In this document: positions 1 through 22,693 of the stretch, one piece after another
Layout of the letters: each line of letters opens with the position of its first letter
How positions within the stretch are numbered: position 1 is the first letter of the stretch
Virus record (IMG/VR): IMGVR_UViG_3300034198_027116
Span: 1-64,000 of that record
DNA length: 64,000 bases
Source of the DNA: a virus
Direction: 5' to 3' (one strand)
Program-made: the position numbers and the translations under genes
The notes under the pieces: generated by a model
Told to the model about the DNA's origin: nothing
What the model saw: only the letters and a program-made list of their open reading frames with translations
Databases searched by the model: none

Positions 1-336
1 ACCCGCGAGGCTTTCGCCGCGCTCGGTAACGCGGCGAAGGTCGCGGAGTACGACGGAAAGATCGCGGAGGCTTCCGCCGCCGCGGGTAAGGATCTCGCGG
101 AAGCCTTCGCCGAGAAGCGGAACGGCGAGAAGCCGCTCCCCGAACTTAGCGCGACGGTAATCCGCGAGACGCTTATCGAGCTCGGCTTCGAGGGAGAGGA
201 ACTCGAGCGCTTCGTAAAGGACGGGGAGGCCTACCGCTACCTCTATAACCGGCTCGCTAAGGAAGGCCGGTTCGCTAAGCCGGAAGCCGTTACCCCGGTC
301 GCGGAAGCCGACGAGACGGAAGCGGGGGAGGCGTAA
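1..336 (+). CDS. Hypothetical protein, C-terminal part (5' end outside window)
   Basis: The reading frame is open from base 1 to a TAA at 334-336, giving the last 111 residues of a protein whose start lies to the left. It is rich in Ala, Glu and Arg and looks helical, with a charged acidic tail; no family is recognised. The visible part contains no His, Gln, Cys, Trp or Met, because the DNA contains no CA or TG dinucleotide. Two GC-rich hairpins follow the stop. Confidence 0.75.
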   Translation, partial: TREAFAALGNAAKVAEYDGKIAEASAAAGKDLAEAFAEKRNGEKPLPELSATVIRETLIELGFEGEELERFVKDGEAYRYLYNRLAKEGRFAKPEAVTPVAEADETEAGEA

Positions 337-352
337 CCCCTCCGACGGTAAC

Positions 353-379
353 CCCCCCGCCCGGTAACCGGGCGGGGGG
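353..379 (+). terminator. GC-rich hairpin after first gene
   Basis: A 12-bp perfect stem (353-364 with 368-379) encloses a TAA loop, 17 bases after the stop at 336. No T-run follows, so it may act as a weak terminator or as a 3'-end stabiliser. The 337-643 gap holds this hairpin, a second one at 395-426 and a purine-rich stretch before the next ribosome binding site. No small gene is evident there. Confidence 0.6.
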
Positions 380-394
380 TAAGCGGTACGCGAT

Positions 395-426
395 AGCCCG
401 GCCGGGGGTAACCCCGGCCGGGCTTT
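395..426 (+). terminator. Second tandem hairpin terminator
   Basis: A 13-bp stem (395-407 with 412-424, AGCCCGGCCGGGG and its complement) has a GTAA loop and is followed by TT then CC. Tandem placement after the first hairpin suggests a real transcription end. Confidence 0.6.
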
Positions 427-643
427 CCGGCGTTCTCGGTTACCGCGCCGGCGGTTACCGTCGAGAGGATAGCCGTCGGTTCGGTAATCCCTCCGGGGAT
501 AAGAGGGAAAACGTATTGGAAGGGCTCGGAAAGAGTCCCGGATTTCCCGAGTTCGTAAGCCGAAAGTCGATAACCGCTTCGGGGATTTCCCGAGTCGGTT
601 ATCGGAGTTCGGATAACCCGAACCCGAGAAAGGAAAGATAGGA

Positions 644-1186
644 ATGCGCTACTTCTATTTCGCGGAGGGCGGAAAGCGAGATCTCGTTATCCGCGGGTAC
701 GGTAACGCCCTACGGGGTACCGATACCGACGCTATCGTCCGGGGGCTTCTCGCGGCTCTTCTTACCCCGGAGCCGGTAATCGGGAAAAAGGTTATCCGGG
801 TTACGGATACCGAGGTCTTCTTCTCCGAGCCGGAAAGCCTCGACGAGGAAGCCTCGCTCTACGGTTACGGGCTCGCGGTTACGGTTATCCGCCCCGCCCG
901 TAACGCGACTAACCCTTTCGCGCCCGGGGTTCCGAGCCTCGCTTACCGGTTCCGGGTAACCTTCGACGGCGATCTCTCGAACGGAGTTACGTCCGGCGAT
1001 CTTCTCCGGCTCTTCGGTTACGAGCCCGAGGATTACCGGATCTTCCGAATCTCCCCGTACTTTCGCGCCGGGGTATCGGGAGTCGCGCTACCCGAGGGAA
1101 CGGAACTCGGCCCGGAGGGAACCGCCGAGCTCCTACCGGCCGAGGAGAACCGGGACGCGGAGATCGCCTACGCGATTCTCGACTAG
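644..1186 (+). CDS. Hypothetical protein free of five amino acids
   Basis: A 180-residue protein starting at ATG 644 with an AGGAAAG ribosome binding site at 631-637. No family is recognised. It is a mixed, soluble-looking protein with alternating hydrophobic stretches and no signal peptide. Apart from the initiator it has no Met, and it has no His, Gln, Cys or Trp at all. This follows from the total absence of CA and TG from the gene after the start codon. A hairpin with a TTCG loop follows the stop. Confidence 0.75.
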   Translation: MRYFYFAEGGKRDLVIRGYGNALRGTDTDAIVRGLLAALLTPEPVIGKKVIRVTDTEVFFSEPESLDEEASLYGYGLAVTVIRPARNATNPFAPGVPSLAYRFRVTFDGDLSNGVTSGDLLRLFGYEPEDYRIFRISPYFRAGVSGVALPEGTELGPEGTAELLPAEENRDAEIAYAILD

Positions 1187-1198
1187 CGGTAGTCGTCT

Positions 1199-1228
1199 CC
1201 CCCGTAACCGCTTCGGCGGTTACGGGGG
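1199..1228 (+). terminator. Hairpin with TTCG tetraloop
   Basis: A 13-bp perfect stem (1199-1211 with 1216-1228) is closed by TTCG, an especially stable tetraloop in RNA, 12 bases after a stop codon. A second imperfect stem (GGCCGATA around 1229-1236 with its partner near 1264-1273) follows. Confidence 0.6.
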
Positions 1229-1313
1229 CGGCCGATACCTCGCTCTCCGTAACCGGGGGTCGAGATATCGGCCGTCGAATAACCGACGGTCGAGAAAGAA
1301 AGGGAGGATTACC

Positions 1314-2069
1314 GTGAAAGCGGAAATCCGTTATACGAGTGGCGCGACGCCGAATATCGGGGTCGTTCTTACCGATATCGGGGTTACGTTCCCCGACGGT
1401 TACGAGCCGGCGGCTTGGCGAAAGTACGAGTTCGTCGCCCGGCGTTACCCCGCCGAAATCTACGTCGGGGGATTCGGGAAGGGCGGTAGCCCGATCTCGG
1501 CAAGCGATCTCCGGTACTCCCCGCGGCCTTGGCAGCCGGAGTTTCCGGGAACGTCTTACCTCGACGCTCGGATGTACCCCTCGGCGATAATCGAAACCGT
1601 CGATTACCCGAACCCGGGTATCGCTCCGGTCGTAACCCTCGAGGATTTCGCCTCGACGGTTCTCGAGGACGTCGGTTCTCCCCGCGAGGCTTCTCCGTAC
1701 CGGCGCTATCGTCTAACCGATAGCGATCCGATCGAAGACCCGGACGGGGCTTTCTACGACCTCGGCAGCGCCCTCGGCGTTACCTTCCGCGTCGATGTCC
1801 CTCGCCGCGATACCGAGCGCCGTTACCACGACGTCGGAACCCTCTATACGGATACCTACGAGGTTCTTCTTCTCGCCGGGGATACCGAGTACGGGGATTC
1901 CTCGGGCGTCGTTCTCGTCGCTCGTAACCCCGAGGGGGGATTCCTCGACGACGAGAAGCTCGCGCCGCTTTTCTGGTTCGGTTATACCGCCTACGGAACC
2001 CTCGCCGAGTACGACGAGAACGGTTACGTCAGGAACGGCTGGCGCGCCGGCTTCCTCGCCGGCGAATAA
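1314..2069 (+). CDS. Hypothetical protein, partly CA/TG-depleted gene
   Basis: A 251-residue protein beginning at GTG 1314, seven bases after a GGGAGG ribosome binding site (1302-1307). It is rich in Tyr, Gly, Asp and Pro and looks like a soluble beta-rich protein; no family is recognised. It has no Cys and very few His, Gln, Trp and internal Met. The gene carries 12 internal CA/TG dinucleotides, so the depletion is strong but weaker than in the two genes before it. It is the last gene before normal composition returns. Confidence 0.72.
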   Translation: MKAEIRYTSGATPNIGVVLTDIGVTFPDGYEPAAWRKYEFVARRYPAEIYVGGFGKGGSPISASDLRYSPRPWQPEFPGTSYLDARMYPSAIIETVDYPNPGIAPVVTLEDFASTVLEDVGSPREASPYRRYRLTDSDPIEDPDGAFYDLGSALGVTFRVDVPRRDTERRYHDVGTLYTDTYEVLLLAGDTEYGDSSGVVLVARNPEGGFLDDEKLAPLFWFGYTAYGTLAEYDENGYVRNGWRAGFLAGE

Positions 2070-2075
2070 GCGACG

Positions 2076-2105
2076 AGCCGGCTATCCGATCGGAGATAGC
2101 CGGCT
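2076..2105 (+). terminator. Hairpin at the end of the depleted tract
   Basis: An 11-bp stem (AGCCGGCTATC at 2076-2086 with its complement at 2095-2105) has an 8-base loop and starts six bases after the stop of the preceding gene. Confidence 0.55.
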
Positions 2106-2106
2106 A

Positions 2107-2123
2107 TCGCGCAATCGAAAACG
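2107..2123. repeat. 17-base repeat, copy 1
   Basis: TCGCGCAATCGAAAACG is found here and again at 5877-5893. Both copies are intergenic and lie downstream of a hairpin. The flanks differ. Confidence 0.6.
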
Positions 2124-2224
2124 TCGCGCTTGCCGCGGCGCGATTACGGTTACGCGTCGAAGTACATCCAAGTTCTACAACCAAATCGGGAAAGCGATTT
2201 CCCGGCAACCCGGAAGGAACAACC

Positions 2225-2602
2225 ATGAGCGACAACCAAGATAACGCCAACCGCCTCGCTGGCATCTACCTCGCGAGTCTCCGTAGGAGGATTGCGAGTA
2301 CGAAGAAAATCACGATCGAGTATGTCCGGGAGGATACACTCGAGATCCTGGATACGGCAACGATCCCGGTGGATACCCGGATCACGCTGGCGCTAACGAT
2401 CCTGCGCCGGCTCGACATCCCCTGTCCCGTCAAGGCCGAGATCCTCAGCGCCGACGAGGTTGGCCATGACGAGCACCCCGAATGGCTTGTCATGACCTAC
2501 GCCAACCAGAACGGCTCCAGCTCCAAGATCCGCAGCGCCAGCAGCGCCGACGTCAAGCGCGGCCGGCTGGTGCCCGAGATCCCACTCCGAAACCGAATGT
2601 AG
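2225..2602 (+). CDS. Hypothetical protein
   Basis: A 125-residue protein with ATG at 2225 and a GGAAGGA ribosome binding site just upstream. It begins with a helical Arg-rich segment and has a basic C-terminal region (residues about 95-125). No family is recognised. It is the first gene of normal composition after the depleted tract and is followed after 14 bases by another small gene, so the two are probably co-transcribed. Confidence 0.65.
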   Translation: MSDNQDNANRLAGIYLASLRRRIASTKKITIEYVREDTLEILDTATIPVDTRITLALTILRRLDIPCPVKAEILSADEVGHDEHPEWLVMTYANQNGSSSKIRSASSADVKRGRLVPEIPLRNRM

Positions 2603-2616
2603 AAAGGACTACAACG

Positions 2617-3078
2617 ATGAACGACAATCACGAGAACGACCTGCCGCAGTACTGCCATCGCATCGACGCCAACCCGCCGATGTACTGGCAGGCTTACCCA
2701 GGCGAGGGCTGGTATCTCCTCGTCGTCAACGAGGGGAACGCCTGGGACGACGCGCTGGAGGAAGCGATTGAGCCGGGCCACAGCGAGTACCCGTACTCGT
2801 CCGGCGCGTTGCCCTGGACGGCTTATACCGTCGCCCTCAACCCGCCCGGCAGGATGACGCATCGGCCATCGGCAAGCGACGTAGCCGCCATCCCGGAACT
2901 CGTCAAGTGCCTCTGCGCCAACGTCGCGTCGTTGCCGCCTGAGGTGGTTGGGACTCTGCTCAAGCACGTCTACGACAACGCTCAGGAGTTGTGTAACGAA
3001 GCGATTGCCCTCGACGTCGAGTGGCACTACGCGACTGCTGCGGAGGCGTTTGCCTCTTCGGTGACAACCAGCGTCTAG
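2617..3078 (+). CDS. Hypothetical protein
   Basis: A 153-residue acidic protein. The ATG at 2617 is chosen because an AGAAAGGA ribosome binding site (2601-2608) precedes it, although the frame is open further upstream. Aromatic residues are frequent near the N-terminus, and two Cys lie near residue 95. No family is recognised. A strong hairpin follows the stop. Confidence 0.65.
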   Translation: MNDNHENDLPQYCHRIDANPPMYWQAYPGEGWYLLVVNEGNAWDDALEEAIEPGHSEYPYSSGALPWTAYTVALNPPGRMTHRPSASDVAAIPELVKCLCANVASLPPEVVGTLLKHVYDNAQELCNEAIALDVEWHYATAAEAFASSVTTSV

Positions 3079-3084
3079 CGCAAC

Positions 3085-3112
3085 GGGGCGAGCGGTTGCT
3101 GCCGCTCGCCCC
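3085..3112 (+). terminator. Hairpin terminator
   Basis: An 11-bp stem (GGGGCGAGCGG at 3085-3095 with 3102-3112) has loop TTGCTG and starts six bases after the stop codon. A new promoter follows 46 bases later, supporting a transcription boundary. Confidence 0.65.
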
Positions 3113-3157
3113 AAGCGTCGAAGCGGTTGCTGTTACGAAACTGTTACAGCAATCGCC

Positions 3158-3186
3158 TTGACTTTGGTTCGGCAATATGGTACAAT
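3158..3186 (+). promoter_or_regulatory. Sigma-70/SigA-type promoter with extended -10
   Basis: TTGACT (3158-3163), a 17-base spacer and TACAAT (3181-3186), with TGG directly before the -10. This is the best match to the vegetative consensus in the window. It heads the small membrane-peptide genes at 3238 and 3363. The ATATGG-TANNNT core recurs at five other rightward promoters. Confidence 0.8.
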
Positions 3187-3237
3187 AGGTTGTAAGTGTT
3201 CGAGATGTCACCGACAACCGCAACCAAGGGAGGGATT

Positions 3238-3336
3238 GTGAGTGAGTTGATTGAGGAGTTCGTGTTCTGGACAATCGTCGTAGCGGGTGGCCTGTTCTCC
3301 GCTGCGACGTCCGCCTGGCTGCTGCTGGCAGCCTGA
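3238..3336 (+). CDS. 32-residue single-span membrane peptide
   Basis: A GTG start at 3238 has a GGGAGGGA ribosome binding site (3229-3235) and lies 51 bases after the -10 at 3181. Residues about 8-31 form one hydrophobic helix after a short acidic N-terminus, so it should insert in the host membrane. Such peptides are often holin-like, host-modulating or superinfection-exclusion factors in phages, but no function can be assigned here. Confidence 0.6.
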   Translation: MSELIEEFVFWTIVVAGGLFSAATSAWLLLAA

Positions 3337-3362
3337 CCCAACCAAGACTGGAAGGAACAATC

Positions 3363-3563
3363 ATGAGCAACACCATCGTCAAGCCGCGCATCTACACCAC
3401 GATCAGCGCGAGCCACCGCAACGTCGAGACCGACTGGGCCGAGCGGCGTGTCGCGTTCTACCGCAAGCGCGCCGAGCGCAAGTGGGAGTACGGATTCCTC
3501 GTCGGGCTGGCCATGGCGACCGCAATCACCGTCGCCTGGTTCTACCCGATGGTCAACCCGTAG
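3363..3563 (+). CDS. Small basic protein with C-terminal membrane helix
   Basis: A 66-residue protein with ATG at 3363 behind GGAAGGAA. Residues 1-43 are strongly basic and soluble, and residues about 45-60 form one membrane span. It follows the 32-residue membrane peptide by 26 bases, so both probably come from the promoter at 3158. No family is recognised. Confidence 0.65.
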   Translation: MSNTIVKPRIYTTISASHRNVETDWAERRVAFYRKRAERKWEYGFLVGLAMATAITVAWFYPMVNP

Positions 3564-3571
3564 GAGGGCAC

Positions 3572-3598
3572 TGCGCGGGGGCTTACTGCCCCCGCGCA
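3572..3598 (+). terminator. Hairpin terminator
   Basis: An 11-bp GC-rich stem (TGCGCGGGGGC at 3572-3582 with 3588-3598) has loop TTACT and starts eight bases after the stop. It is followed by another promoter at 3638. Confidence 0.65.
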
Positions 3599-3637
3599 AC
3601 CCTTCGTAACGGTTAGGTAACGATGATGCACAGTACC

Positions 3638-3666
3638 TTTCATTTGGTTACACAGTATGGTAATCT
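3638..3666 (+). promoter_or_regulatory. Promoter with extended -10 (TGG-TAATCT)
   Basis: TTTCAT (3638-3643), a 17-base spacer and TAATCT (3661-3666), preceded by AGTATGG. The AGTATGG core matches the promoters at 6002, 13371 and 38945. A leader of about 120 bases precedes the gene at 3792. Confidence 0.65.
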
Positions 3667-3791
3667 TGAAGAGTGAGAAGTTTCCGTTATCGCTTTCGCA
3701 ACCCGGCAGCGACAAGGGCAACTGATTGCCTCAGCTCGATTGACCCGTCGAGCGCCAATCTCTTACAGGGTCAACAGGAAGGATGGTTGTC

Positions 3792-4292
3792 ATGACCACC
3801 AGCAACGAGATCGTCCCCAGCAGCCTCACCGACATCGAGGGACTGGACACCAACGACCCGGCGGTTGCCGCGCTGCTCCAGCGCTACGCCGACCTGGAGG
3901 CCAAAGCGCAGCGCTCCCCGCGCCAGCGCAAGTCCTTCGGCGAGATGTGGAACAAGCGCATCGCCACTCCCGTCGAGAAGATGCCGGCCGGCTACAAGAT
4001 CATCGTCGAGTGGCTCATCGACGAGGGCCACATCGAGCAGGAGCAGGCCGGGCTGGTGTACGCCGCCTGCTGGTCGTACCAGTGCGCCGAGGGCAAGGAG
4101 GTCCGCCACGCCGGGGGCGCCAGCCGCGAGGCGCTGAAGGAGGCGCGGGAGGCGCTGGAGAAGGCCGCGCACTCGCGCATGACCAGCCAGCCCGAGGCCA
4201 ACGCCGACGACGACACCGACGACGACGACATTGAGGACGAGGACATCGACCTCGACGACATCGACGACGAGGACATCGACGACGAGGAGTAG
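3792..4292 (+). CDS. Hypothetical protein with highly acidic tail
   Basis: A 166-residue protein. The ATG at 3792 is preferred over the in-frame ATG at 3783 because it leaves nine bases after the AGGAAGG ribosome binding site. Residues about 15-37 carry the pattern LDTNDPAVAALLQRYADLE, which recurs in the gene at 6113. The middle is helical, and the last 33 residues are almost all Asp, Glu and Ile. Acidic tails occur in DNA-mimic proteins and SSBs; a role in DNA or protein binding is only a guess. It is the first gene of its transcription unit. Confidence 0.7.
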   Translation: MTTSNEIVPSSLTDIEGLDTNDPAVAALLQRYADLEAKAQRSPRQRKSFGEMWNKRIATPVEKMPAGYKIIVEWLIDEGHIEQEQAGLVYAACWSYQCAEGKEVRHAGGASREALKEAREALEKAAHSRMTSQPEANADDDTDDDDIEDEDIDLDDIDDEDIDDEE

Positions 4293-4299
4293 CGCAACC

Positions 4300-4326
4300 G
4301 GGGCGGCCGGCAACGCCGGCCGCCCC
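4300..4326 (+). terminator. Hairpin terminator
   Basis: A 12-bp perfect stem (GGGGCGGCCGGC at 4300-4311 with 4315-4326) has a three-base loop and lies just after the stop at 4292. Confidence 0.65.
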
Positions 4327-4405
4327 TGCGTCGCCCCGGGGTGGTGCCCGGCGGCCTGATGAGGCAGCCCTTGCCGAAACGCAGCAACTACCAACCTCCT
4401 ATGGC

Positions 4406-4440
4406 CTAGCCGATTGCCGTTTCTGACGGCAATCGGCTAG
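4406..4440 (+). promoter_or_regulatory. 15-bp perfect inverted repeat before a gene
   Basis: Arms CTAGCCGATTGCCGT (4406-4420) and its exact complement (4426-4440) enclose TTCTG. It lies directly upstream of the ribosome binding site of the gene at 4464, so it could be an operator, an mRNA 5' stem or a processing site. No T-run follows. Confidence 0.5.
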
Positions 4441-4463
4441 CGGCCAAGGAGAAGGGAGATGGA

Positions 4464-4694
4464 ATGGACCCGCAACTGCGAGCGTATTGGGAGATCGCCA
4501 TTCTCAAGCGCACCTGCGCCGAGCACGCGCAACGCAGGATTCAGCTGGAGCAGAATCGCCTGACGATCCGCTCCGCAACCGATCAGATCGGCTGCCGCAT
4601 CTGGCACGTTCGCGCGCTCCAAGCGACGCGGCGTGCCATTCGTGATTGCGAGCGCGACATCAAGGAGTGCCTCGGATGCGCGTGCGGCGACTGA
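4464..4694 (+). CDS. Hypothetical helical protein
   Basis: A 76-residue basic, Arg-rich protein with ATG at 4464 behind AAGGAGAAGG. It is probably all-helical, with four Cys, three of them in the last 10 residues. No family is recognised. It overlaps the next gene by 19 bases in another frame. Confidence 0.55.
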   Translation: MDPQLRAYWEIAILKRTCAEHAQRRIQLEQNRLTIRSATDQIGCRIWHVRALQATRRAIRDCERDIKECLGCACGD

Positions 4695-4876
4695 TCGAAC
4701 TCGGACAACTCACGCGCGCAACGGAGCCGGCGCTGGTCGAGCTGTGGCAGCGTCAGCTGGAGTTGCCCTACCTCGGCGATGCCACGATCGGGATGCTGAA
4801 GCTCAGCAACGGCGCGTTGGCAACCAACGTCGAGGCAATCAACGCTCTGGTAAGAGGAGGTCGCATCGATGCCTGA
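4676..4876 (+). CDS. Hypothetical protein
   Basis: A 66-residue protein; ATG 4676 is chosen because AAGGAG (4662-4667) lies eight bases upstream. It is predicted to be helical, with a basic N-terminus. It overlaps the genes on both sides (19 and 8 bases), a sign of translational coupling. No family is recognised. Confidence 0.55.
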   Translation: MRVRRLIELGQLTRATEPALVELWQRQLELPYLGDATIGMLKLSNGALATNVEAINALVRGGRIDA

Positions 4877-5468
4877 CATCGAGCGCTGCAACTGCGGCGA
4901 CGACTGGCGCCGCTGCGACTGCAGCTGCGCGCCAACCGAGAACCCGCAGTTCATCGGCGAGTACGCGGCCGGTCAGCTGGCCGAGGGCGACGTTGCCGCT
5001 CCGTGGATGTACCCGGAGACCGACATCCAGTGCTACCGCAGCGTGCCCTGGTTGTACGCGGACGGCAAGTTGGAGGACGTACTGCGGCACGACCTGCTGT
5101 ACGTCCTCAACGACCACCGCGCAACCAGCCTCATCTGGCGTCGCAGGGAAACCTTCGACGGCGATGTCTACTGGTTCGCAGCCATGCTGCCCGGCATCCA
5201 CCACGTGACTGTCGAGCGCATCCCCTGCGTGGCCTACGTGTGGCACCGCATGGTTGACGTAGGCTTCAGCGGTGAGATCCGCAACCTGCACGAGACAAGC
5301 GGCCACGTGATGATGCTGGACGACAGCGAAGCCATCGCCAACGCGGCTGAGATCCAGGCGCAGCACAACGCAAGAGCGCTGCCGTTGCTCAACGCAGCGA
5401 CTGGCGAGGAGCGGCGTGCGCTGGACCGCGCAGCCTACCTCGCCGACATCCTCTCCGACACCAACTAG
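4869..5468 (+). CDS. Hypothetical protein with Cys-rich N-terminus
   Basis: A 199-residue protein with ATG 4869 behind AGAGGAGG. Residues 7-21 contain five Cys in a CxCxx..CxCxC arrangement that could bind a metal. The rest is aromatic-rich and acidic, with several His. No family is recognised. It ends 15 bases before the next gene. Confidence 0.65.
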   Translation: MPDIERCNCGDDWRRCDCSCAPTENPQFIGEYAAGQLAEGDVAAPWMYPETDIQCYRSVPWLYADGKLEDVLRHDLLYVLNDHRATSLIWRRRETFDGDVYWFAAMLPGIHHVTVERIPCVAYVWHRMVDVGFSGEIRNLHETSGHVMMLDDSEAIANAAEIQAQHNARALPLLNAATGEERRALDRAAYLADILSDTN

Positions 5469-5483
5469 AACAGGAGCAAGACT

Positions 5484-5774
5484 ATGCCCAAGAAGCCCCC
5501 GAAGCGCACTCGCGAGCGCGACACCCTCAACAAGGCAGCCAAGATGGAGCGCAACCGTTTCATCCGGGTGGTGCGCGGCGCACGCAAGGTCGGCAACCCC
5601 GATCCCGGCTACGGCGCGTGGCGCAACGAGTGGCTCGATGCCACCGAGCACAGCGGCAAGCGGGTCAACCGCGACGGCCGCATCCTGACCGACCACTCCC
5701 AGGTCGTCAGCCAGACGGAGCGGCTGCGCGCCGAGTTCCAGCGCTTCGCCGCACCGCACTTCGGCCTGCGCTAG
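5484..5774 (+). CDS. Hypothetical basic protein
   Basis: A 96-residue Arg/Lys-rich protein with ATG 5484 behind AGGAGCAAG. The N-terminal 30 residues are strongly basic and could contact nucleic acid. No family is recognised. It is the last gene before the strong terminator at 5795. Confidence 0.6.
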   Translation: MPKKPPKRTRERDTLNKAAKMERNRFIRVVRGARKVGNPDPGYGAWRNEWLDATEHSGKRVNRDGRILTDHSQVVSQTERLRAEFQRFAAPHFGLR

Positions 5775-5794
5775 CTGCTCAAGCGCGACCCACC

Positions 5795-5829
5795 AGCCCC
5801 GGTAGACGGCAACGTCTACCGGGGCTTTC
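5795..5829 (+). terminator. Intrinsic terminator
   Basis: A 14-bp perfect stem (AGCCCCGGTAGACG at 5795-5808 with 5813-5826) has a GCAA loop and is followed by TTT. It lies 20 bases after a stop codon and is the clearest terminator in the window. The 5775-6112 gap also holds the 17-base repeat and the promoter at 6002; no gene is seen in it. Confidence 0.8.
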
Positions 5830-5876
5830 GTGCTTTCTGGGTGCGCGCCGAGGGCTGCTGAGCCTGGTTGCCGCCC

Positions 5877-5893
5877 TCGCGCAATCGAAAACG
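5877..5893. repeat. 17-base repeat, copy 2
   Basis: This is the same TCGCGCAATCGAAAACG word as at 2107-2123, again in a leader-like gap between a terminator and a promoter. Confidence 0.6.
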
Positions 5894-6001
5894 CGCAGAT
5901 TGCGGACAACGACGCATCCCGCTTTGCGAAAGTGAAAGCCGGTTGTCTTGGTGCGCGCAGTTGTTGCGTGCTTAGCCAGACGAAAGCAAGTCGTACAGGG
6001 A

Positions 6002-6030
6002 TTTCCTTTCTATCGACAGTATGGTATAAT
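6002..6030 (+). promoter_or_regulatory. Promoter with perfect extended -10
   Basis: TTTCCT (6002-6007), a 17-base spacer ending in ATGG, then TATAAT (6025-6030). TGG-TATAAT is a consensus extended -10. It drives the gene at 6113 through an 80-base leader. Confidence 0.75.
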
Positions 6031-6112
6031 CTAATCAGACAGAAGAAACGTCTCGCAGATGTACAATCCCCGATGCATCCGCTATCACCAATCAGGGGAA
6101 GGGAGAACCATC

Positions 6113-6715
6113 ATGTCCAATGTCGACGAGATGCCGGATCTGGATACCAGCGATCCGGCGATCGCAGAACTGGTTGACCGGCTGGAAGACCTCGAACAGC
6201 AGGTGGAGGCCAAGGAGCAGGCCAAACTGGCAAAGGCGAACCGCAAGCGCCCGGGTCAGTCCGTGCCGCGCATGACGCTCGAGGAGCAGTTCGTCTACGA
6301 CCTGGCCCTCACCGAGGTGGACGTGCCGGGTGGCCGTCGCCGCGATGCCATCGCGGACGGATACGCCAAGATCTACGACCTGCTCATGTCGCGCGTGGGC
6401 ACCGAACTGGAGGAGTACGTCGAGGCCAACGGCTTCACGCTCCAGCTGCTCATGGCAACCATGAAGGTGTACTACTCCAAGGAGGGTCGCATCGTGCGCG
6501 GTGAGCAGCCGCGCGCCAAGGGTGACCAGACCCCGCAGCCGGCCGCTCCGATCGCCACTCCTGGTCCTACCACGGACGGCAACACGGAGGACGAGCAGCC
6601 GACTCAGGAGGCAGACGTTCTCGGCATCGACGCTGACGACATCGGCATCGACCTGAGCGACCTGGTCGGCGACGACGTGCTCGCCGGCTTCGTGTTCGGC
6701 GACGACGATGACTGA
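6113..6715 (+). CDS. Hypothetical protein with acidic tail, relative of the 3792 gene
   Basis: A 200-residue protein. ATG 6113 follows a GGGAAGGGAGAA ribosome binding site; an upstream in-frame ATG at 6059 lacks one. Residues 9-28 (LDTSDPAIAELVDRLEDLE) match the N-terminal motif of the gene at 3792. A helical middle, a Pro/Gln linker (about 140-170) and an Asp-rich tail follow. The two genes share layout and promoter type but little else, so they look like diverged paralogs. Function is unknown. Confidence 0.7.
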   Translation: MSNVDEMPDLDTSDPAIAELVDRLEDLEQQVEAKEQAKLAKANRKRPGQSVPRMTLEEQFVYDLALTEVDVPGGRRRDAIADGYAKIYDLLMSRVGTELEEYVEANGFTLQLLMATMKVYYSKEGRIVRGEQPRAKGDQTPQPAAPIATPGPTTDGNTEDEQPTQEADVLGIDADDIGIDLSDLVGDDVLAGFVFGDDDD

Positions 6716-6722
6716 TCGCTCG

Positions 6723-6749
6723 CAGCCGCCCGGCGTTGCCGGGCGGCTG
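6723..6749 (+). terminator. Hairpin terminator
   Basis: A 12-bp perfect stem (CAGCCGCCCGGC at 6723-6734 with 6738-6749) starts eight bases after the stop. The 6750-6921 stretch after it shows no convincing gene. Confidence 0.65.
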
Positions 6750-6921
6750 TGGCTTCGCTGGAAACTAATCCAGCCTGAACGAGCGCTGGGTAGTTACCAG
6801 CCGAAAAGCCACGCGTGGACGATCTGGTCGGTACGGGCACTGCCACCCCATTCCTTGGTGAACCCGTGCGCGTGTCATCGACTGCTATCCAGCGCTCGTT
6901 CATCAACCAACAGGAGGGGTT

Positions 6922-9529: not shown

Positions 9530-9747
9530 GCGTACAGATCGAAACGAATGCGGTCAGTGAGAACTTTGTCATTGACTACAGCGAGGAGCAGGTGACGGTT
9601 CGCCTGCATCCTGATTGCACTGGCTGTTTCAGTGTTCACGTTGTCGATGACACCGCAGAGACGCTAGAGTTCACTCTCCAGCATGATGGTGAGTCCTGCC
9701 CGGTCCACTCGGTTTCCACCGGGTTGGCGCCGCGAGAGGGGGCGTGA
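9526..9747 (+). CDS. Hypothetical protein
   Basis: A 73-residue, beta-rich, acidic protein with ATG 9526 in an ATGA overlap. Three Cys, two as CTGC, may bind a metal. No family is recognised. Confidence 0.55.
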   Translation: MSVQIETNAVSENFVIDYSEEQVTVRLHPDCTGCFSVHVVDDTAETLEFTLQHDGESCPVHSVSTGLAPREGA

Positions 9748-9971
9748 TGCGCGCCGTGTGCAAGGTCATCCTCAACGACGAGCAGTGGGCCGAGGTGCTG
9801 CAGTGCTTGTGGTGGCAGACCGTCAGCAGCCAATCCTCGCACCTCGCCGCGATTGCCCACTCCGTACAGGAGCAGGTAGAGCGCCAGCAGGAGGCCTCGC
9901 TCATCGACCTCGACCCACGCGAGGTCGAGTTGCGTCGGTGGGATGGCGAGCGCGAGGTGCCGGCACTGTGA
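9747..9971 (+). CDS. Hypothetical helical protein
   Basis: A 74-residue protein; ATG 9747 shares its A with the previous TGA, and an in-frame GTG lies at 9744. It is predicted to be largely helical. Its stop overlaps the GTG of the ligase, so the two may be translated together. Confidence 0.55.
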   Translation: MRAVCKVILNDEQWAEVLQCLWWQTVSSQSSHLAAIAHSVQEQVERQQEASLIDLDPREVELRRWDGEREVPAL

Positions 9972-10750
9972 ACTCGCAAGACCCGACGACCTGGCCAGCC
10001 TTCGCACTCTGCGCCGAGGCAGAGGCGCTTCCGCGCAACGCGGGAGAGCGCCTCTGGCAGCGCAAGGCAGATGGGTGCCGCGCTTACCTGACGAAAGAGC
10101 TGCTGATGTTTCGGGGCGGCAAGCCCACGCGGCACAACCTCGCCATCGCGGAGCGGATGCCTAGCGACTGGTTGCTGGACGGAGAGCTGGTGTCTCCCGC
10201 GCAAAACGTAGGCGAGTGCACCTCGCTCGTGGCATCTAGGTCCTGGCAGTCGCTCTCGTTCCAGGTATTCGATGCGCTGACGATGAGCGGCATCGACCTT
10301 CGCGTCCTGCCCTACTACAAGCGGTGGGATGCGCTCAACCAGGTCTTGCCAAACGACGTGGTAGAGGTGCACTGCCTGCCCAACCACGAGATGCCTCCCA
10401 TCCCCGAGGGATGGGAGGGCATCGTGGGCAAGGACCTCAACGCGCGCTGGCAACCGGGGCGTACCCGTGCTTCCGTCAAGTGGAAGATCACCGGCGAGCT
10501 GCAGGCGATCATCACAGGCTTTAGCGAGGGCAGCGGGTCGTGGCGTCACAGCGTTGGCAAGGTGCACTTTGGCCTCGCTAACGCTCAGGGCGAGATCGTT
10601 GAGGTAGGCGTCGCTGGCGGCCTCGGCACCTTCGATCGGCGGCGCTTCTGGGCAACGCCCGAGCAGTTCGTAGGTAGAGGGTGCGTCATCCGTCACTACG
10701 GCATGAACCGCAACAAGCTGCGCAATCCCATCTTCGTGGGACTGCGCTGA
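9968..10750 (+). CDS. ATP-dependent DNA ligase
   Basis: A 260-residue enzyme that should seal DNA nicks through a lysyl-AMP intermediate. The nucleotidyltransferase motifs are present in order: KADGCR (33-38, with the adenylated Lys), DGEL (71-74), FQVFD (98-102), EGIVGKD (150-156) and VKWK (170-173), followed by an OB-like domain (about 180-260). It has no extra N-terminal DNA-binding domain, so it is a minimal ligase. GTG 9968 overlaps the previous stop. A Ku gene lies 1.5 kb downstream. Its TGA is the first triplet of the palindrome at 10748. Confidence 0.9.
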   Translation: MNSQDPTTWPAFALCAEAEALPRNAGERLWQRKADGCRAYLTKELLMFRGGKPTRHNLAIAERMPSDWLLDGELVSPAQNVGECTSLVASRSWQSLSFQVFDALTMSGIDLRVLPYYKRWDALNQVLPNDVVEVHCLPNHEMPPIPEGWEGIVGKDLNARWQPGRTRASVKWKITGELQAIITGFSEGSGSWRHSVGKVHFGLANAQGEIVEVGVAGGLGTFDRRRFWATPEQFVGRGCVIRHYGMNRNKLRNPIFVGLR

Positions 10751-10774
10751 AATGTGCCACATTGGCACGTTTCG
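10748..10774. promoter_or_regulatory. 27-bp palindrome, copy 1
   Basis: Left arm TGAAATGTGCCA (10748-10759), spacer CAT, right arm TGGCACGTTTCG (10763-10774); 10 of 12 pairs match. It belongs to a four-member family (also 22657, 34183 and 58139). It begins with the ligase stop codon and lies in the 200-base gap before the gene at 10952. No T-run follows. Confidence 0.75.
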
Positions 10775-10887
10775 AGCACTCGCATGAACTGCTCTCGCAG
10801 TCATGCTCCGATGCTTTCGCACGGAGGTTCTCGCTGCGCCAGGTGCCGCGCATGGCTTCTGCCGCTAGGCATATCAAACCCAACCCA

Positions 10888-10911
10888 CACGGCCTTTACC
10901 CCAAGGCCGTG
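10888..10911 (+). terminator. Hairpin in the ligase-downstream gap
   Basis: A 9-bp perfect stem (CACGGCCTT at 10888-10896 with 10903-10911) has loop TACCCC. It stands 30 bases upstream of the ribosome binding site for the next gene, so it may be a terminator or a leader attenuator. Confidence 0.5.
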
Positions 10912-10951
10912 CGCGGTATCCTATAGGGGTAACTATCCACGAGGAGAGATT

Positions 10952-11500
10952 ATGACAACCGGAGATGAGTTGCGCGGCAGATGCCGTGGCCTCAGCATCG
11001 AGCAGTTAGAGGAACTGATCGAGGAGCAGGAGAGCGACGAGATGCGCGAGGTGCTGGTGGACGTGCTGCAGCAGCGACGCGATCGGCAGACCGGCGAAGC
11101 ACCCGCTCCCGCTCGCAAGAAGCGCGGACGAACCGCACTTCGCGCGGAGCAGCCCCGAGACATCGCAACCAACTCCGCTGACCTGTTCATGCAGGATGAG
11201 GAGCGCGCGGCTGCCTGGCGCGAGGCTCTCGTGGAAGCGACTGACGAGAACGGCAACGTCGCCCTGACCGGACGCATCGTGCAGCTGGCGGTGGGCGCTT
11301 ACTACGCTGAGCGTCGCGCGCAGAAGCGCAAGCGAGTGAGCGAGGCAAAGGTTGTCTCCGAGGCCGCACCTGAGCCGGTTGCTGCTCAGGCCGAGGCCGA
11401 ACCGGCGCAGCTCGATGACGTCAATCCCGACGACCTGCTGCTCTCGGCGGATCTGGTAGCGGACGGCTTCCTGCCCATCCGCGCACCCGGAGAGGAGTGA
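10952..11500 (+). CDS. Hypothetical protein with acidic C-terminus
   Basis: A 182-residue protein. ATG 10952 is chosen for its GAGGAGAG ribosome binding site (10941-10948), although the frame stays open to 10754. A helical Glu-rich N-terminus is followed by a basic patch (about 50-65) and a helical middle. The end (DDVNPDDLLLSADLVADGF) resembles the tail of the 6113 protein. Function is unknown. Confidence 0.65.
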   Translation: MTTGDELRGRCRGLSIEQLEELIEEQESDEMREVLVDVLQQRRDRQTGEAPAPARKKRGRTALRAEQPRDIATNSADLFMQDEERAAAWREALVEATDENGNVALTGRIVQLAVGAYYAERRAQKRKRVSEAKVVSEAAPEPVAAQAEAEPAQLDDVNPDDLLLSADLVADGFLPIRAPGEE

Positions 11501-11501
11501 T

Positions 11502-11906
11502 GTGGTCGCTCAGTTCGCAGCGGCGATAGCAATCGTACTTCTGATTGCCTTCATCATCGGTTGTGCGATCGAGCAGATTACGCCGGAGATTCACGTCATC
11601 GAAGTGATAGAGCGCGTTGTCGAAAAGCCAGCACCAACCACCGCCAAGAGCAATAAGTCAAAGCCGAAGCCCACGCCTCGGCCAGCAAGACCAACGCCAA
11701 CAAGCCAGCCAGCGCCGCAGCAACCCCCGCCACCTACTCCACCACCGCCAGAGGTAGACGAGACAGACAAGCAAGCGCTGGAGGAAACCGCGATGGGTCT
11801 GCGCTCCTTGGGCTTCCCCGCCAAGACGGCAAAGGCGATGGCCGAAGGCACCAGCGGTACGGTCGAGCAGCGAATCAAGCAAGCACTCAACGGAGGTAAG
11901 ACATGA
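11502..11906 (+). CDS. Membrane-anchored protein with Pro-rich linker and UBA/RuvA-III-like end
   Basis: A 134-residue protein with GTG 11502 two bases after the previous stop. Residues 3-22 form one membrane span with a Cys at its end (IIGCAIEQ). Residues about 45-85 are a Lys/Pro/Thr linker. Residues about 90-130 resemble the three-helix domain found at the end of RuvA (LxSLGF..KTAKAMAEG). This could tether a partner to the membrane; the domain call is tentative. Confidence 0.55.
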   Translation: MVAQFAAAIAIVLLIAFIIGCAIEQITPEIHVIEVIERVVEKPAPTTAKSNKSKPKPTPRPARPTPTSQPAPQQPPPPTPPPPEVDETDKQALEETAMGLRSLGFPAKTAKAMAEGTSGTVEQRIKQALNGGKT

Positions 11907-12094
11907 CAGTCCTGGGACCCAACGACGATATGCGCATCATCATCGGAAACCGACCGGTGCGACGCGTCGGCGTGGATGTCTCGTTCGACGAGTTGATGAG
12001 CGGGATGATCAACCGCCTGAGCAACCCGCAGCATCGCATCGCAACCCCGCACGTAGATCGCCTCGGTCGCCCCAAGGCCGAGGACGGTGAGTAG
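11903..12094 (+). CDS. Hypothetical protein
   Basis: A 63-residue protein with ATG 11903 in an ATGA overlap and an AACGGAGG site upstream. It is basic and has no recognised family. Confidence 0.55.
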   Translation: MTVLGPNDDMRIIIGNRPVRRVGVDVSFDELMSGMINRLSNPQHRIATPHVDRLGRPKAEDGE

Positions 12095-12100
12095 GGCGAG

Positions 12101-12274
12101 ATGTTCAACCTACAGGCCGAGGTCTCGGAGTGGCTCGTGCAGATGGTGTTCAAGCATCTGCAGATCGACCCCGCAGATCAGAAGGAGTTCAATCGCATCA
12201 TCACCGATGCGCGGTTCCACGAGACAGTTCTCTACTTACAGGAAGGTCAAGACGATGAACACACCGCAGGCTAA
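12101..12274 (+). CDS. Hypothetical small protein overlapping Ku
   Basis: A 57-residue helical protein with ATG 12101, six bases after the previous stop. It ends inside the Ku gene (20-base overlap, different frame), so Ku translation may depend on it. No family is recognised. Confidence 0.5.
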   Translation: MFNLQAEVSEWLVQMVFKHLQIDPADQKEFNRIITDARFHETVLYLQEGQDDEHTAG

Positions 12275-13103
12275 GGCACCCAGCCGAGCCACCACCACGA
12301 CCGTGCTAAGCCTCGGGCTAGCCAGCATCTCGGTCGAGCTGCTGACGGGATCGGAGGAGTCGCGTGTCTCGCGCTCGCAGTTCGTGGTCGTGAGCAGCGA
12401 CGGCGAGCACCCGCTGCCCGAGTACCACCCGGTCGGTACCAAGCCGTACGACAAGGTCACCGGCGAGGACGTCAGCCGAGACGCCATCGTCAAGGGTGTG
12501 ACGGTCGGCAGTGACGTCGTCCTCGTGAGCGACGAGGAGATGGCATCCTTCGGCATGGAGCGCGGCGAGACTCCCATCCTGGGCTTCGTGCGCCGCGCAG
12601 ACCTGACCGCCGAGCAGCTGCGCTGGCTGGTCCCCACCAAGATCTACCAGGTGCGCCCCGCCGCTCTGCGCGTCGGCAAGGACAAGCGCCCCAACCGCTC
12701 GGCGCAGAAGCTGTTCACGCTGCTGATGGGATCGCTGGAGCGCAGCGACGCGTGGGCGCTCGTCGCCCTGACGCTGCGCGACGGCGGCGCCAAGCGGTAC
12801 GGGATGCTCGACCATCACGGGCGCCTATCCGTGATGGCGTACGCGCAGGATCTGCGCGAGGAGGCTGACCTGCCGGTGATCGACACCACGGAACAGGAGC
12901 AGGCGCTGATGGATCAGATGATCGCCGGCAACGTCCTCTCGGATCTGCCGTCCTTCGACAACGAGTCCCGCCAGATGCTCGACGATCTGGTGACGCGCAA
13001 GCTCAACGGCGAAGAGATCGTGCAGGTCGCCGCCGTGACCGCGACCGAGCAGGAGCAGGATGTCGCTGAGCTGCTGCGCAAGAGCCTGGGGCTGGACTCG
13101 TGA
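12255..13103 (+). CDS. ku: Ku-family DNA end-binding protein
   Basis: A 282-residue protein with ATG 12255 behind AGGAAGG. The sequence follows bacterial Ku: an opening strand (LSLGLASISVELL), a lysine-containing KPYDKVTGEDV stretch, a DEEM region, IYQVRPA near residue 135 and RSAQKLFTLL. The C-terminal region is acidic and helical. Bacterial Ku homodimers ring double-strand ends and recruit ligase. Mycobacteriophages Omega and Corndog are known to encode Ku. The phage ligase upstream (9968) and a SWIM protein directly downstream support an end-joining or genome-circularising role, which is inferred. Confidence 0.82.
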   Translation: MNTPQAKAPSRATTTTVLSLGLASISVELLTGSEESRVSRSQFVVVSSDGEHPLPEYHPVGTKPYDKVTGEDVSRDAIVKGVTVGSDVVLVSDEEMASFGMERGETPILGFVRRADLTAEQLRWLVPTKIYQVRPAALRVGKDKRPNRSAQKLFTLLMGSLERSDAWALVALTLRDGGAKRYGMLDHHGRLSVMAYAQDLREEADLPVIDTTEQEQALMDQMIAGNVLSDLPSFDNESRQMLDDLVTRKLNGEEIVQVAAVTATEQEQDVAELLRKSLGLDS

Positions 13104-13425: not shown

Positions 13426-13995
13426 ATGAGCAGGCGATACGTGATGAAGGTCAGCGAACTGACCGAGCTCGCCAGCAAGCAGGTACAGGCGATCAACGCG
13501 ATCGAGCGCCAGGCCAACGCGCGCGTCAAGGCAGCCTACGAGACGCACGCCAGCGATGCGGTGCGCGAAGCGCTGGGCCGGCTGGACGTGCTGGACGACT
13601 TCAAGCGCATCGGCCAGCTGCAGCAGGAACTCAACGTGCTGCAGCGCCGGGTGCGCGAGAACCTGGGTGATACCACCCAGTCCTACGCCTACCACAGCAT
13701 CGTATACGCCGCGAACGCAGAGGACGCGATCGCTGCGTGCTCTCGCTTCGGTACGCAGCTCCCGCCGTATCTGGCCGAGGAGATCCAGCAGGTCATGCTG
13801 GAGCGCGGCGTGCAGATCGCCCTGGGCTACAGAGCCCCGGATACCGCGCAACTCGTGCGCGAGTTCAAGCAGTGTCAGTCCTTGGCTGAACTCAAGAACG
13901 TCATGCACAAGCACCACCAAGAGGCACTGACCCACTTCGGTCCAGTACTCAAGGCCACCACGCCCACCCACCAGGAAGGACACATCCATGCCTGA
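13426..13995 (+). CDS. Hypothetical coiled-coil protein heading the MoxR/VWA operon
   Basis: A 189-residue protein with ATG 13426 behind AAAGGAAGGGG; an internal ATG at 13444 is possible. Residues about 10-85 are helical and probably coiled-coil. The C-terminal half is helical with a His-rich end. It overlaps the AAA+ gene by eight bases. It may be an adaptor or substrate of the ATPase; nothing in the sequence proves this. Confidence 0.65.
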   Translation: MSRRYVMKVSELTELASKQVQAINAIERQANARVKAAYETHASDAVREALGRLDVLDDFKRIGQLQQELNVLQRRVRENLGDTTQSYAYHSIVYAANAEDAIAACSRFGTQLPPYLAEEIQQVMLERGVQIALGYRAPDTAQLVREFKQCQSLAELKNVMHKHHQEALTHFGPVLKATTPTHQEGHIHA

Positions 13996-15037
13996 TCTGA
14001 CCCACCTCATCCCCGCCAAGCGCTTCGGCAGCAAGGCTACCGGCGGCTCGTACATCTCGCGCCGGCTGCCCGGCTTCGACCAGCCCGACACCGAGGTGCT
14101 CACCACCGCGGTCAAGGAGGGCTGGAACGTGCTCAAGCTGGGCCCAACCGGCAACGGCAAGACGTCGGCCATCCAGGCCACGTGTGCCGACAACGAGTGG
14201 CCGCTGGCCATCGTCAACTGCAACGGCATGACCACCGTCGAGGATCTGGTCGGCCAGGTGCTGCCCAGCGAGGGTGCTGATCGCGACTCGCAGGCGCTCA
14301 TCGACCGCGTGGCGAAGGCCAAGCAGCAGACGCTGGTTTGCAAGGCGAAGTCCGACACGCAGGGCTTCTTCGCCGCGCAGCTCGAGCAGACGCGTGCGGA
14401 GCTGGAGCTGGAGGTCGCCTACAAGGAGGGCGCGTCCGGGCTGGAGTGGCACGACGGCGTGCTCGTCGCGCTGATGAAGGGCGACCCCAACTACGAGCAC
14501 ACCGTGCTGCTCGCTGACGAGATCAACTTCGGCCCAGCCAAGGTGCTGTCCGTGATCAACGGCGTCACCGACGATCGGCGGCAGCTGACCCTCGCCCAGC
14601 ACAAGGGCGAGGTGGTCCAGGCACACGACGGGTTCGCGTTCATGGCAGCCATGAACCCCAACTACGAGGGCACTCGTCCGCTGAACAAGGCGCTCCGCGA
14701 CCGGTTCCACCTCACGCTGTCCTACGACTACGATGAGGAGATCGAGGCGCAGCTGATCCCGAACGACAAGCTCCGCGGCCTCGCCAAGAAGCTGCGCGAC
14801 ATGCACGCCAAGGAGGAGTTGCTGACGCCGACTTCCACCCGCGGCCTACTTCACTTCATGGAGATCGAACGCGTGCTGGGCACGACCGCAGCCATCGAGT
14901 CGTTCGTCGCCATGTTCGAGGAGGACGAGCGCGCTGCGGTGCGCGAGAGCATGATGCTTCATCTGCGCGGTGGCGCAGGCACGACCCGCGGCGGCATCGG
15001 CCGCACGGACATCAACGACCCGAACGAGGTGCAGTAG
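13988..15037 (+). CDS. MoxR/CbbQ-type AAA+ ATPase
   Basis: A 349-residue ATPase with Walker A GPTGNGKT (52-59), Walker B VLLADE (173-178) and sensor 1 within AAMNP (about 220-224), followed by a lid region. MoxR-type ATPases act as chaperones that remodel partners or insert metal cofactors, almost always with a VWA protein encoded next door. The next gene is such a partner. The stop TAG overlaps its GTG by one base, so a stoichiometric complex is likely. The substrate is unknown. Confidence 0.88.
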   Translation: MPDLTHLIPAKRFGSKATGGSYISRRLPGFDQPDTEVLTTAVKEGWNVLKLGPTGNGKTSAIQATCADNEWPLAIVNCNGMTTVEDLVGQVLPSEGADRDSQALIDRVAKAKQQTLVCKAKSDTQGFFAAQLEQTRAELELEVAYKEGASGLEWHDGVLVALMKGDPNYEHTVLLADEINFGPAKVLSVINGVTDDRRQLTLAQHKGEVVQAHDGFAFMAAMNPNYEGTRPLNKALRDRFHLTLSYDYDEEIEAQLIPNDKLRGLAKKLRDMHAKEELLTPTSTRGLLHFMEIERVLGTTAAIESFVAMFEEDERAAVRESMMLHLRGGAGTTRGGIGRTDINDPNEVQ

Positions 15038-21921: not shown

Positions 21922-22659
21922 ATGACCAAGAACCAGCGCACGCTACTTCACAAGCTGGAACCCCTCGGCTATCGCGCCACGGGGTACGACCGCAGGGGGC
22001 ACCTCGTGGTGCAGCACCCGGAGGCCGGCTACGTGTCGATCGCCGGAACCCCGGGCAACCACCGCGACACCGTCAACACGCTGCTCGAAGCCAAGCGCCG
22101 CCTGCGCTTTGCTCGCAGTCACCACGCTCAGTTCCTACAGTACCTGTACGAGAAGTTCGAGATCCTGCCGGGTGAGACCAAGATCGTCGAGATGAACGCG
22201 CAGAGCTTGCTTCGAGAGTACCTGGATACCAACCAGGTGACGTGCGACCGCAAGCAGTTTCATTCCGTGTACGAGAACGCGAGGCGCAACATGACGTGCA
22301 TGCGTCGGGGCGCGAACGGTCAGTGGAAGATTCAGCGCCCAGCAGAGCCGAAGGTACAGCACCCCTACGCCGCAGAACGCGATAGCGCCGCTCTCGCGCC
22401 CGTCGCGCCGAAGGGTACCCCGCTCCCGGTGATCGCGCCGAAGGCCGCTAGCGACGCGGGAAAGGCTCCCGACGCCGATTTGGGCGGCCTCTCGCCCGTC
22501 GTGGTCGCCGAGTTGCGGCGCGTTCTAGAGCTGCCGGACGATCGCGAGCGCCTCGTGCTCGCCCAGTCCACGGCGAGTCAGCTGGCAGATCGCATCGAGG
22601 CCGATGCCCGGCACGTCGTCGCTGAGCTGCGCGCCCTGGCCAGTCTGCTCGCTGTGTGA
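21922..22659 (+). CDS. Hypothetical, possibly DNA-binding protein
   Basis: A 245-residue basic protein with ATG 21922 behind CAGGGAGA. An N-terminal small domain (1-55) is followed by a helical basic region (55-125), an Ala/Pro linker and a helical end (about 190-245). No family is recognised. Its TGA stop is the first triplet of the palindrome at 22657. Confidence 0.62.
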   Translation: MTKNQRTLLHKLEPLGYRATGYDRRGHLVVQHPEAGYVSIAGTPGNHRDTVNTLLEAKRRLRFARSHHAQFLQYLYEKFEILPGETKIVEMNAQSLLREYLDTNQVTCDRKQFHSVYENARRNMTCMRRGANGQWKIQRPAEPKVQHPYAAERDSAALAPVAPKGTPLPVIAPKAASDAGKAPDADLGGLSPVVVAELRRVLELPDDRERLVLAQSTASQLADRIEADARHVVAELRALASLLAV

Positions 22660-22683
22660 AACATGCCAACGTGGCATGTTTCA
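22657..22683. promoter_or_regulatory. 27-bp palindrome, copy 2 (perfect)
   Basis: TGAAACATGCCA (22657-22668), ACG, then the exact complement TGGCATGTTTCA (22672-22683). All 12 pairs match, making it the reference copy. It begins with the stop codon of the upstream gene and touches the CAGGAG ribosome binding site of the gene at 22694, so a bound protein or an RNA stem there would affect that gene. Confidence 0.85.
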
Positions 22684-22693
22684 GGAGACTAAG

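What the first reader, a model, noticed from the sequence alone, without database searches (positions are those of the whole stretch)
1..1310. DNA virtually free of CA and TG dinucleotides
In 1,310 bases I find CA zero times and TG twice (517-518, and the ATG at 644), where about 160 would be expected from equal dinucleotide use. The avoidance covers coding, intergenic and hairpin DNA and both strands, so it acts on nucleic acid rather than on protein. TA takes over. Possible causes are a frequent-cutting host defence, a base modification tied to this step, extreme context mutation, or foreign DNA. I know of no described phage with this property.
Basis: seen in the sequence. Interest (0 to 1): 0.93.

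Follow-up and report, generated by a model that had tools for sequence, protein, structure and literature searches.

The report
Phage DNA stretch lacking CA/TG steps
The first 2.1 kb of this phage contig holds three genes and their RNA hairpins built almost entirely without the DNA step CA/TG, although the other 63 kb uses it normally; this looks like very strong selection against a two-letter DNA word, most likely because a host defence reads that word in the DNA that enters the cell first.

Summary
Bases 1-1310 hold CA 0 times and TG 2 times (152 expected); bases 1-2150 hold 17 (251 expected). Of these 17, about half are forced by Trp, Met, His, Gln or start codons. From about 2165 to the record's end at 65,765, CA/TG is normal. 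In 1.79 Mb of other viral DNA no dinucleotide falls below 0.11 of expectation in 1 kb; here CA/TG is at 0.01.

A chain that only forbids CA/TG reproduces the other dinucleotide counts to within about 20%. TA is not in excess of that, and T|G codon junctions are purged too. This argues for selection against the step and against CA->TA deamination.

The tract looks like genuine phage DNA: intact frames, Shine-Dalgarno-like sites, and a long perfect hairpin 7-21 bases after each stop. The next genes, which use CA/TG freely, share that design.

Best mechanism (inferred): the early, probably first-entering end has been purged of a two-base word read by a host defence before counter-defence proteins appear; a TG-PAM CRISPR effector is the most concrete candidate. 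Rivals: dinucleotide-reading nuclease, modification-free zone, insert from an unknown element. No relatives, reads or host were available.

The parts
1..2160 (.). CA/TG desert: 17 CA/TG steps to base 2150 where about 251 are expected; sharp right border between about 2131 and 2165; left border unknown because the contig starts inside it
1..336 (+). 3' part of ORF1 (111 aa seen, start lies off the contig), acidic, no Met/Trp/His/Gln/Cys, no homologue found
644..1186 (+). ORF2, 180 aa, ATG start, acidic (pI 4.6), no Met after the start, no Trp/His/Gln/Cys, no homologue found
1314..2069 (+). ORF3, 251 aa, GTG start, acidic (pI 4.5); keeps 4 Trp, 1 Met, 1 His, 1 Gln and five avoidable CA/TG steps; no homologue found
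353..379 (+). perfect 12-bp hairpin 17 bases after the ORF1 stop, loop TAA
395..424 (+). perfect 13-bp hairpin with GTAA (GNRA) loop; its last bases run into a short T run (CTTT)
520..640 (+). structured leader upstream of ORF2 (z = -4.2)
1199..1228 (+). perfect 13-bp hairpin with TTCG loop 13 bases after the ORF2 stop; the stretch 1190-1312 folds with z = -6.8
2076..2105 (+). perfect 11-bp hairpin 7 bases after the ORF3 stop
2225..6750 (+). adjoining left arm of small genes, normal CA/TG, with the same architecture: perfect 11-15 bp hairpins at 3085-3112, 3572-3598, 4300-4326, 4406-4440, 5795-5826 and 6723-6749, five of them 7-21 bases after a stop
2187..2204 (.). palindrome CGGGAAAGCGATTTCCCG just right of the border; the 9-mer GATTTCCCG occurs in the window only here and at 541 and 584 inside the tract (weak link)

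Best explanation
SHOWN: the tract is natural gene-bearing phage-type DNA from which one two-base word, CA/TG, has been almost completely removed, and the statistics fit selection against the word better than mutation. INFERRED: it is the early end of the phage genome, probably the DNA that enters the cell first, and it encodes counter-defence or takeover proteins. A host defence that recognises TG/CA steps can act on this DNA only until those proteins are made, so any TG/CA here is costly, while the same step in later DNA is harmless. Most concrete candidate: a CRISPR effector with a two-base TG PAM, as reported for Cas12c1 and OspCas12c. Every TG or CA is then a possible target for some spacer, and the phage has cleared its first gene cassettes of PAMs. 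A nuclease acting at entry with a CA/TG preference is the alternative within this explanation.
For: CA/TG at 0.01-0.07 of expectation over 2.1 kb and normal elsewhere. A ban-only maximum-entropy chain explains the other dinucleotide counts (O/E 0.81-1.15 for 1-1310, TA 0.81). Codon junctions C|A 2/90 and T|G 2/244. Met/Trp/His/Gln/Cys 0 of 290 residues in ORF1-2, 34 expected. Strand-symmetric and context-free, as expected of a short DNA-level word. The tract is continuous in design with the phage left arm: hairpins of 11 bp or more number 4 in 0-2.2 kb, 6 in 2.2-7 kb and 2 in the other 58.7 kb, mostly placed just after stops; coding regions fold ordinarily while intergenic regions do not. Avoidable CA/TG steps rise away from the contig end: 1 in 1-1310, 7 in 1311-2150 (positions; hand binomial P about 0.007). 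No terminase or portal was recognised among the genes scanned and the structural operon runs off the other end, so the tract is probably at the terminase-distal end, as are the small orphan genes of GMA6. T7 carries ocr as its first gene. Plasmid leading regions are rich in anti-defence genes (PMC11541004). Two-base TG PAMs exist (PMC9522604). PAM depletion in phages is documented (PMC4246573, PMC12174588). A nuclease that cuts phage DNA during injection exists (SNIPE, PMC13190303).
Against: Host, genome ends and reads are unknown. No anti-defence homologue was found. PAM depletions known so far are mild trends analysed genome-wide, not total and local. T7, SPO1, lambda, M6 and GMA6 end regions show no such ban. 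No restriction enzyme with a two-base word is known to me. One sequence only, with no relatives.
Confidence: 0.4

Rival explanations
1. Foreign module or chimeric join: the tract comes from another, unknown replicon whose DNA is CA/TG-free throughout, and was inserted recently into this phage or mis-joined to it in assembly.
For: Sharp border at a gene boundary, at the very end of a metagenomic contig; no homologues in the phage itself; some dinucleotide preferences differ from the bulk of the phage.
Against: Gene-stop-hairpin architecture is shared across the border and nearly absent elsewhere. The five palindromes missing from the phage are also missing from the tract, though some DnaE relatives nearly lack them too. 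A complete IMG/VR pattern scan expected to hit about 5 times per 100 kb of such DNA found none, so no CA/TG-free donor is known. It would also only move the puzzle to the donor.
Confidence: 0.22
2. Modification-free zone: the phage modifies a base at TG/CA steps, as T hypermodification favours TG/TC in M6-like phages, and the tract must stay unmodified, for example for host RNA polymerase, packaging or first transcription.
For: 5hmdU kinase of phage M6 is reported to modify TG dinucleotides (unpublished result cited in PMC6449724); a whole-genome modification with one exempt region would give a sharp, local, strand-symmetric ban.
Against: No hydroxymethylase, 5hmdU kinase or similar gene among the ORFs scanned. 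M6 itself shows no such zone in its first 8 kb. Known thymidine systems also take TC, which is not avoided here.
Confidence: 0.13
3. Context mutation: a CpA-specific cytosine deaminase or CpA methylation converted CA to TA on both strands (RIP-like).
For: CA/TG loss with raised raw TA is the RIP signature; TA is at 1.58 of expectation.
Against: TA is below the level implied by the ban alone (O/E 0.81) or near it (1.15 with left-arm biases). T|G junctions are purged although deamination there changes codon position 1. Frames are open and long hairpins are perfectly paired. The phage carries a uracil-DNA glycosylase.
Confidence: 0.06
4. RNA-level avoidance: early mRNAs avoid both CA and UG because of an RNase or toxin.
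For: All three tract genes lie on the + strand, so RNA and DNA readings cannot be separated by strand.
Against: It needs two independent words, CA and UG, that happen to be reverse complements, while UA, the usual labile step, is tolerated. Non-coding hairpins obey the ban too.
Confidence: 0.06

Closest known systems
PAM depletion in phages (PMC4246573; PMC12174588 for type I-F in Pseudomonas aeruginosa)
   Same: Strand-symmetric loss of a 2-3 base DNA word attributed to escape from CRISPR; TG is a reported PAM of Cas12c1/OspCas12c (PMC9522604)
   Different: Known cases are statistical reductions analysed over whole genomes; here the loss is nearly total, confined to 2.1 kb, and the PAM system and host are unknown
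Restriction-site avoidance in phages and plasmids
   Same: Recognition word removed by selection
   Different: Known words are palindromes or motifs of 4 or more bases; none known to me is two bases long
Leading-region anti-defence islands of plasmids (PMC11541004) and the T7 first-entering region with ocr
   Same: Early-entering DNA carries small, fast-evolving counter-defence genes
   Different: No dinucleotide ban is described; T7, SPO1, lambda and GMA6 end regions are normal
[quoted passage not shown]
   Same: A known phage process that reads TG steps
   Different: Modifies rather than removes the step; M6 DNA is not CA/TG-depleted in its first 8 kb
Repeat-induced point mutation (CpA->TpA) in fungi
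   Same: CA/TG depleted, TA raised
   Different: Genes intact here, no TA excess beyond the ban, codon junctions purged

Membership tests
Phage PAM depletion (CRISPR escape) | Short DNA word depleted on both strands beyond composition | tested here: met
Phage PAM depletion (CRISPR escape) | The word is the PAM of a CRISPR system of the host | not testable with these tools
   Host unknown; TG is a reported PAM of Cas12c1/OspCas12c
Phage PAM depletion (CRISPR escape) | Depletion seen across the phage genome | tested here: not met
   63 kb has normal CA/TG
Type II restriction-site avoidance | Missing word is a recognition site of 4 or more bases | tested here: not met
   The missing word is two bases and its ban accounts for the other dinucleotide counts
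RIP-like or CpA deamination mutation | TA in excess as the product | tested here: not met
   TA O/E 0.81 against a ban-only chain
RIP-like or CpA deamination mutation | Genes broken by stop codons | tested here: not met
   Three open frames
Leading-region anti-defence island | Located at the end that enters first | not testable with these tools
   Contig incomplete; layout only suggestive
Leading-region anti-defence island | Encodes proteins with counter-defence activity or homology | tested here: inconclusive
   No hits in PHROGs, Pfam or PADLOC; low-confidence folds
TG-directed thymidine hypermodification | 5hmdU synthesis and DNA kinase genes present | tested here: inconclusive
   None among the ORFs scanned; not every ORF was scanned and the genome is incomplete

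The most novel reading that the evidence does not exclude
A prokaryotic defence that reads a bare two-base step of double-stranded DNA (TG/CA) acts on phage DNA during entry, and this phage answers with a CA/TG-free entry segment encoding its inhibitors. A dinucleotide-specific attack and a dinucleotide-free landing zone would both be without precedent.
Probability: 0.15. Interest if true: 0.95.

Novelty: new variant of a known kind. Interest (0 to 1): 0.82.

Why it matters
I found no published case of natural protein-coding DNA that bans a whole dinucleotide step. If selection by a defence is the cause, the tract marks where in a phage genome that defence can still act, and its three orphan proteins are prime candidates for new counter-defence proteins. 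The signature is easy to compute, so other phage genomes can be screened for such deserts as a pointer to early-entering DNA and to unknown defences.

Tried and rejected
Homologue searches: all three ORFs in PHROGs, Pfam and PADLOC and in IMG/VR; ORF2 and ORF3 in GTDB genomes and INPHARED; ORF3 in the PDB. All empty; L005/L006 are a 15-residue chance match in CA/TG-normal DNA. Distant blastn against phages and plasmids gave only short chance hits. Six records found by DnaE similarity (L170-L175) have no desert and no match to the tail sheath protein. Single-sequence AlphaFold models of ORF2 and ORF3 are unusable (pLDDT about 33), so no fold search was made. Rfam: nothing at gathering score. 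I first took the shared absence of five palindromes as proof that the tract belongs to this phage, but relatives G001, G003, G004 and G006 nearly lack them too, so it is only weak evidence. Apparent protein similarity between tract ORFs and left-arm genes was chance-level.

Full report
OBSERVATION. The window is bases 1-64000 of a 65,765-base IMG/VR virus record, and the contig begins at window base 1. In 1-1310 CA occurs 0 times and TG twice (517, 645); composition predicts 151.9. The tract runs on to about 2160: 17 steps in 1-2150 against 250.6 expected. Of the 15 steps after 1310, eight are Trp, Met, His, Gln or start codons of ORF3; seven (1340, 1501, 1766, 1796, 2030, 2112, 2131) could have been avoided, against one (517) in the first 1310 bases (positions; assignment by reading the frame; binomial P about 0.007 by hand). 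From 2165 on CA/TG is normal to the end of the record. The longest CA/TG-free run outside the tract is 67 bases. In 1.79 Mb of other viral DNA collected here, no dinucleotide goes below 0.11 of expectation in 1 kb.

WHAT THE TRACT CONTAINS. The end of an ORF (1-336), ORF2 (644-1186) and ORF3 (1314-2069), all on the + strand, with purine-rich Shine-Dalgarno-like stretches upstream of ORF2 and ORF3. ORF1 and ORF2 contain no Met beyond the start and no Trp, His, Gln or Cys (34 expected at left-arm frequencies, observed 0; ORF3 7 against 29). All three are acidic (pI 4.5-4.6) and orphans. Intergenic DNA folds far better than shuffles (z -4.2 to -6.8 within the tract) while most coding DNA does not. 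The hairpins use CA/TG-free loops such as GTAA and TTCG.

DOES IT BELONG TO THE PHAGE? The rest of the record is a GC-rich tailed phage with sheath, tape measure, baseplate, DnaE, DnaB-like helicase, primase, RecA, Ku, ATP-dependent ligase, UDG, pyrimidine-dimer glycosylase and RuvC. Perfect stems of 11 bp or more lie at 353, 395, 1199 and 2076 in the tract and at 3085, 3572, 4300, 4406, 5795 and 6723 in the adjoining arm; only two more occur in the remaining 58.7 kb. Eight of these ten begin 7-21 bases after a stop codon, on both sides of the border (stops). The left-arm hairpins contain CA/TG, the tract hairpins do not. I read this as one genome arm whose first cassettes obey an extra rule. 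Weaker support: AATT, AACGTT, TACGTA, TCCGGA and TTCGAA are absent from the phage (about 10-13 expected each) and from the tract (8.3 expected by an order-2 chain, 4.4 by order 3; synonymous shuffle P 0.0025), but some relatives nearly lack them too. A chimeric join is not excluded without reads. Even then, the CA/TG-free DNA would be real, since an assembly error cannot create open frames and perfect hairpins under such a ban.

SELECTION OR MUTATION? A maximum-entropy chain that forbids only CA/TG, at the tract's base composition, predicts the other dinucleotide counts for 1-1310 with O/E 0.81-1.15; TA is 0.81, so the raw TA rise is a consequence of the ban and not a product of CA->TA change. 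Adding the left-arm biases gives 0.84-1.24 for 1-2150. At codon junctions, third-base C before A occurs 2 of 90 times (55% elsewhere in the phage), and third-base T before G 2 of 244 times, though T is used 23-29% before C or T. CpA deamination on the other strand would change the G, a first codon position, and would leave T|G junctions in place. Selection against the step itself fits better.

MECHANISM. Inferred: the structural operon runs leftward from the unseen right side, no terminase or portal was recognised among the genes scanned, and the tract is at the opposite, early side with small orphan genes. In the known phage with the best DnaE match, Gordonia phage GMA6, the terminase is at one end and small orphan genes at the other. 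In T7 the left end carries the anti-restriction gene ocr first (that this end enters first is general knowledge); plasmid leading regions are hotspots of anti-defence genes (PMC11541004). DNA that arrives before its own inhibitors is exposed; everything later is protected. That would explain a local, near-total, strand-symmetric, context-free ban that weakens away from the contig end. What reads a two-base step? I know of no two-base restriction enzyme. Two-base PAMs exist, and TG is reported for Cas12c1 and OspCas12c (PMC9522604); CasY/Cas12d systems use TA and TG (PMC6509639), but TA is not avoided here. PAM depletion in phages is documented as milder trends. A nuclease that cuts DNA during injection is known (SNIPE, PMC13190303); no sequence word turned up in its text. 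I put about 0.4 on early-region defence evasion, with TG-PAM evasion the largest single part.

RIVALS. An insert from, or join to, an unknown CA/TG-free replicon (0.22); a zone kept free of TG-directed base modification (0.13), prompted by TG/TC-directed thymidine hypermodification (PMC6449724); mutation (0.06); RNA-level avoidance (0.06). About 0.13 is left for causes not thought of.

LIMITS. One sequence, no relatives of the tract, no reads, host unknown, genome incomplete. First- or last-entry status is not tested. End regions of T7, SPO1, lambda, M6 and GMA6 show no comparable ban, so if the model is right the phenomenon is rare or specific to one defence. A complete IMG/VR pattern scan that should hit roughly 5 times per 100 kb of similar DNA (estimate) found none, so such GC-rich DNA is very scarce in that collection.

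Noticed in passing
2160-64000 (and on to 65765 in the record): AATT and the palindromes AACGTT, TACGTA, TCCGGA and TTCGAA are completely absent (about 10-13 expected each); records G001, G003, G004 and G006, found through DnaE similarity, nearly lack them too, suggesting restriction avoidance in this group.
   Followed up: partly
353-6749: Most genes of the left arm are followed 7-21 bases after the stop by a perfect 11-15 bp GC-rich hairpin, mostly without a T run; the rest of the phage has almost none.
   Followed up: partly
9683-13103, 22604-23155, 35915-36670: Repair set on one phage: ATP-dependent ligase and Ku (a possible end-joining pair), pyrimidine-dimer glycosylase and uracil-DNA glycosylase.
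   Followed up: no
13988-17205: AAA_5 ATPase next to a 722-aa protein with a VWA domain, resembling a MoxR-VWA pair, in a phage.
   Followed up: no
58163-60236: Three tandem genes of about 230 aa, all tail-collar or fibre-like, probably duplicated receptor-binding proteins.
   Followed up: no
541, 584, 2196: The 9-mer GATTTCCCG occurs only three times in the window, all upstream of the first genes on either side of the tract border; it may be a regulatory site.
   Followed up: partly
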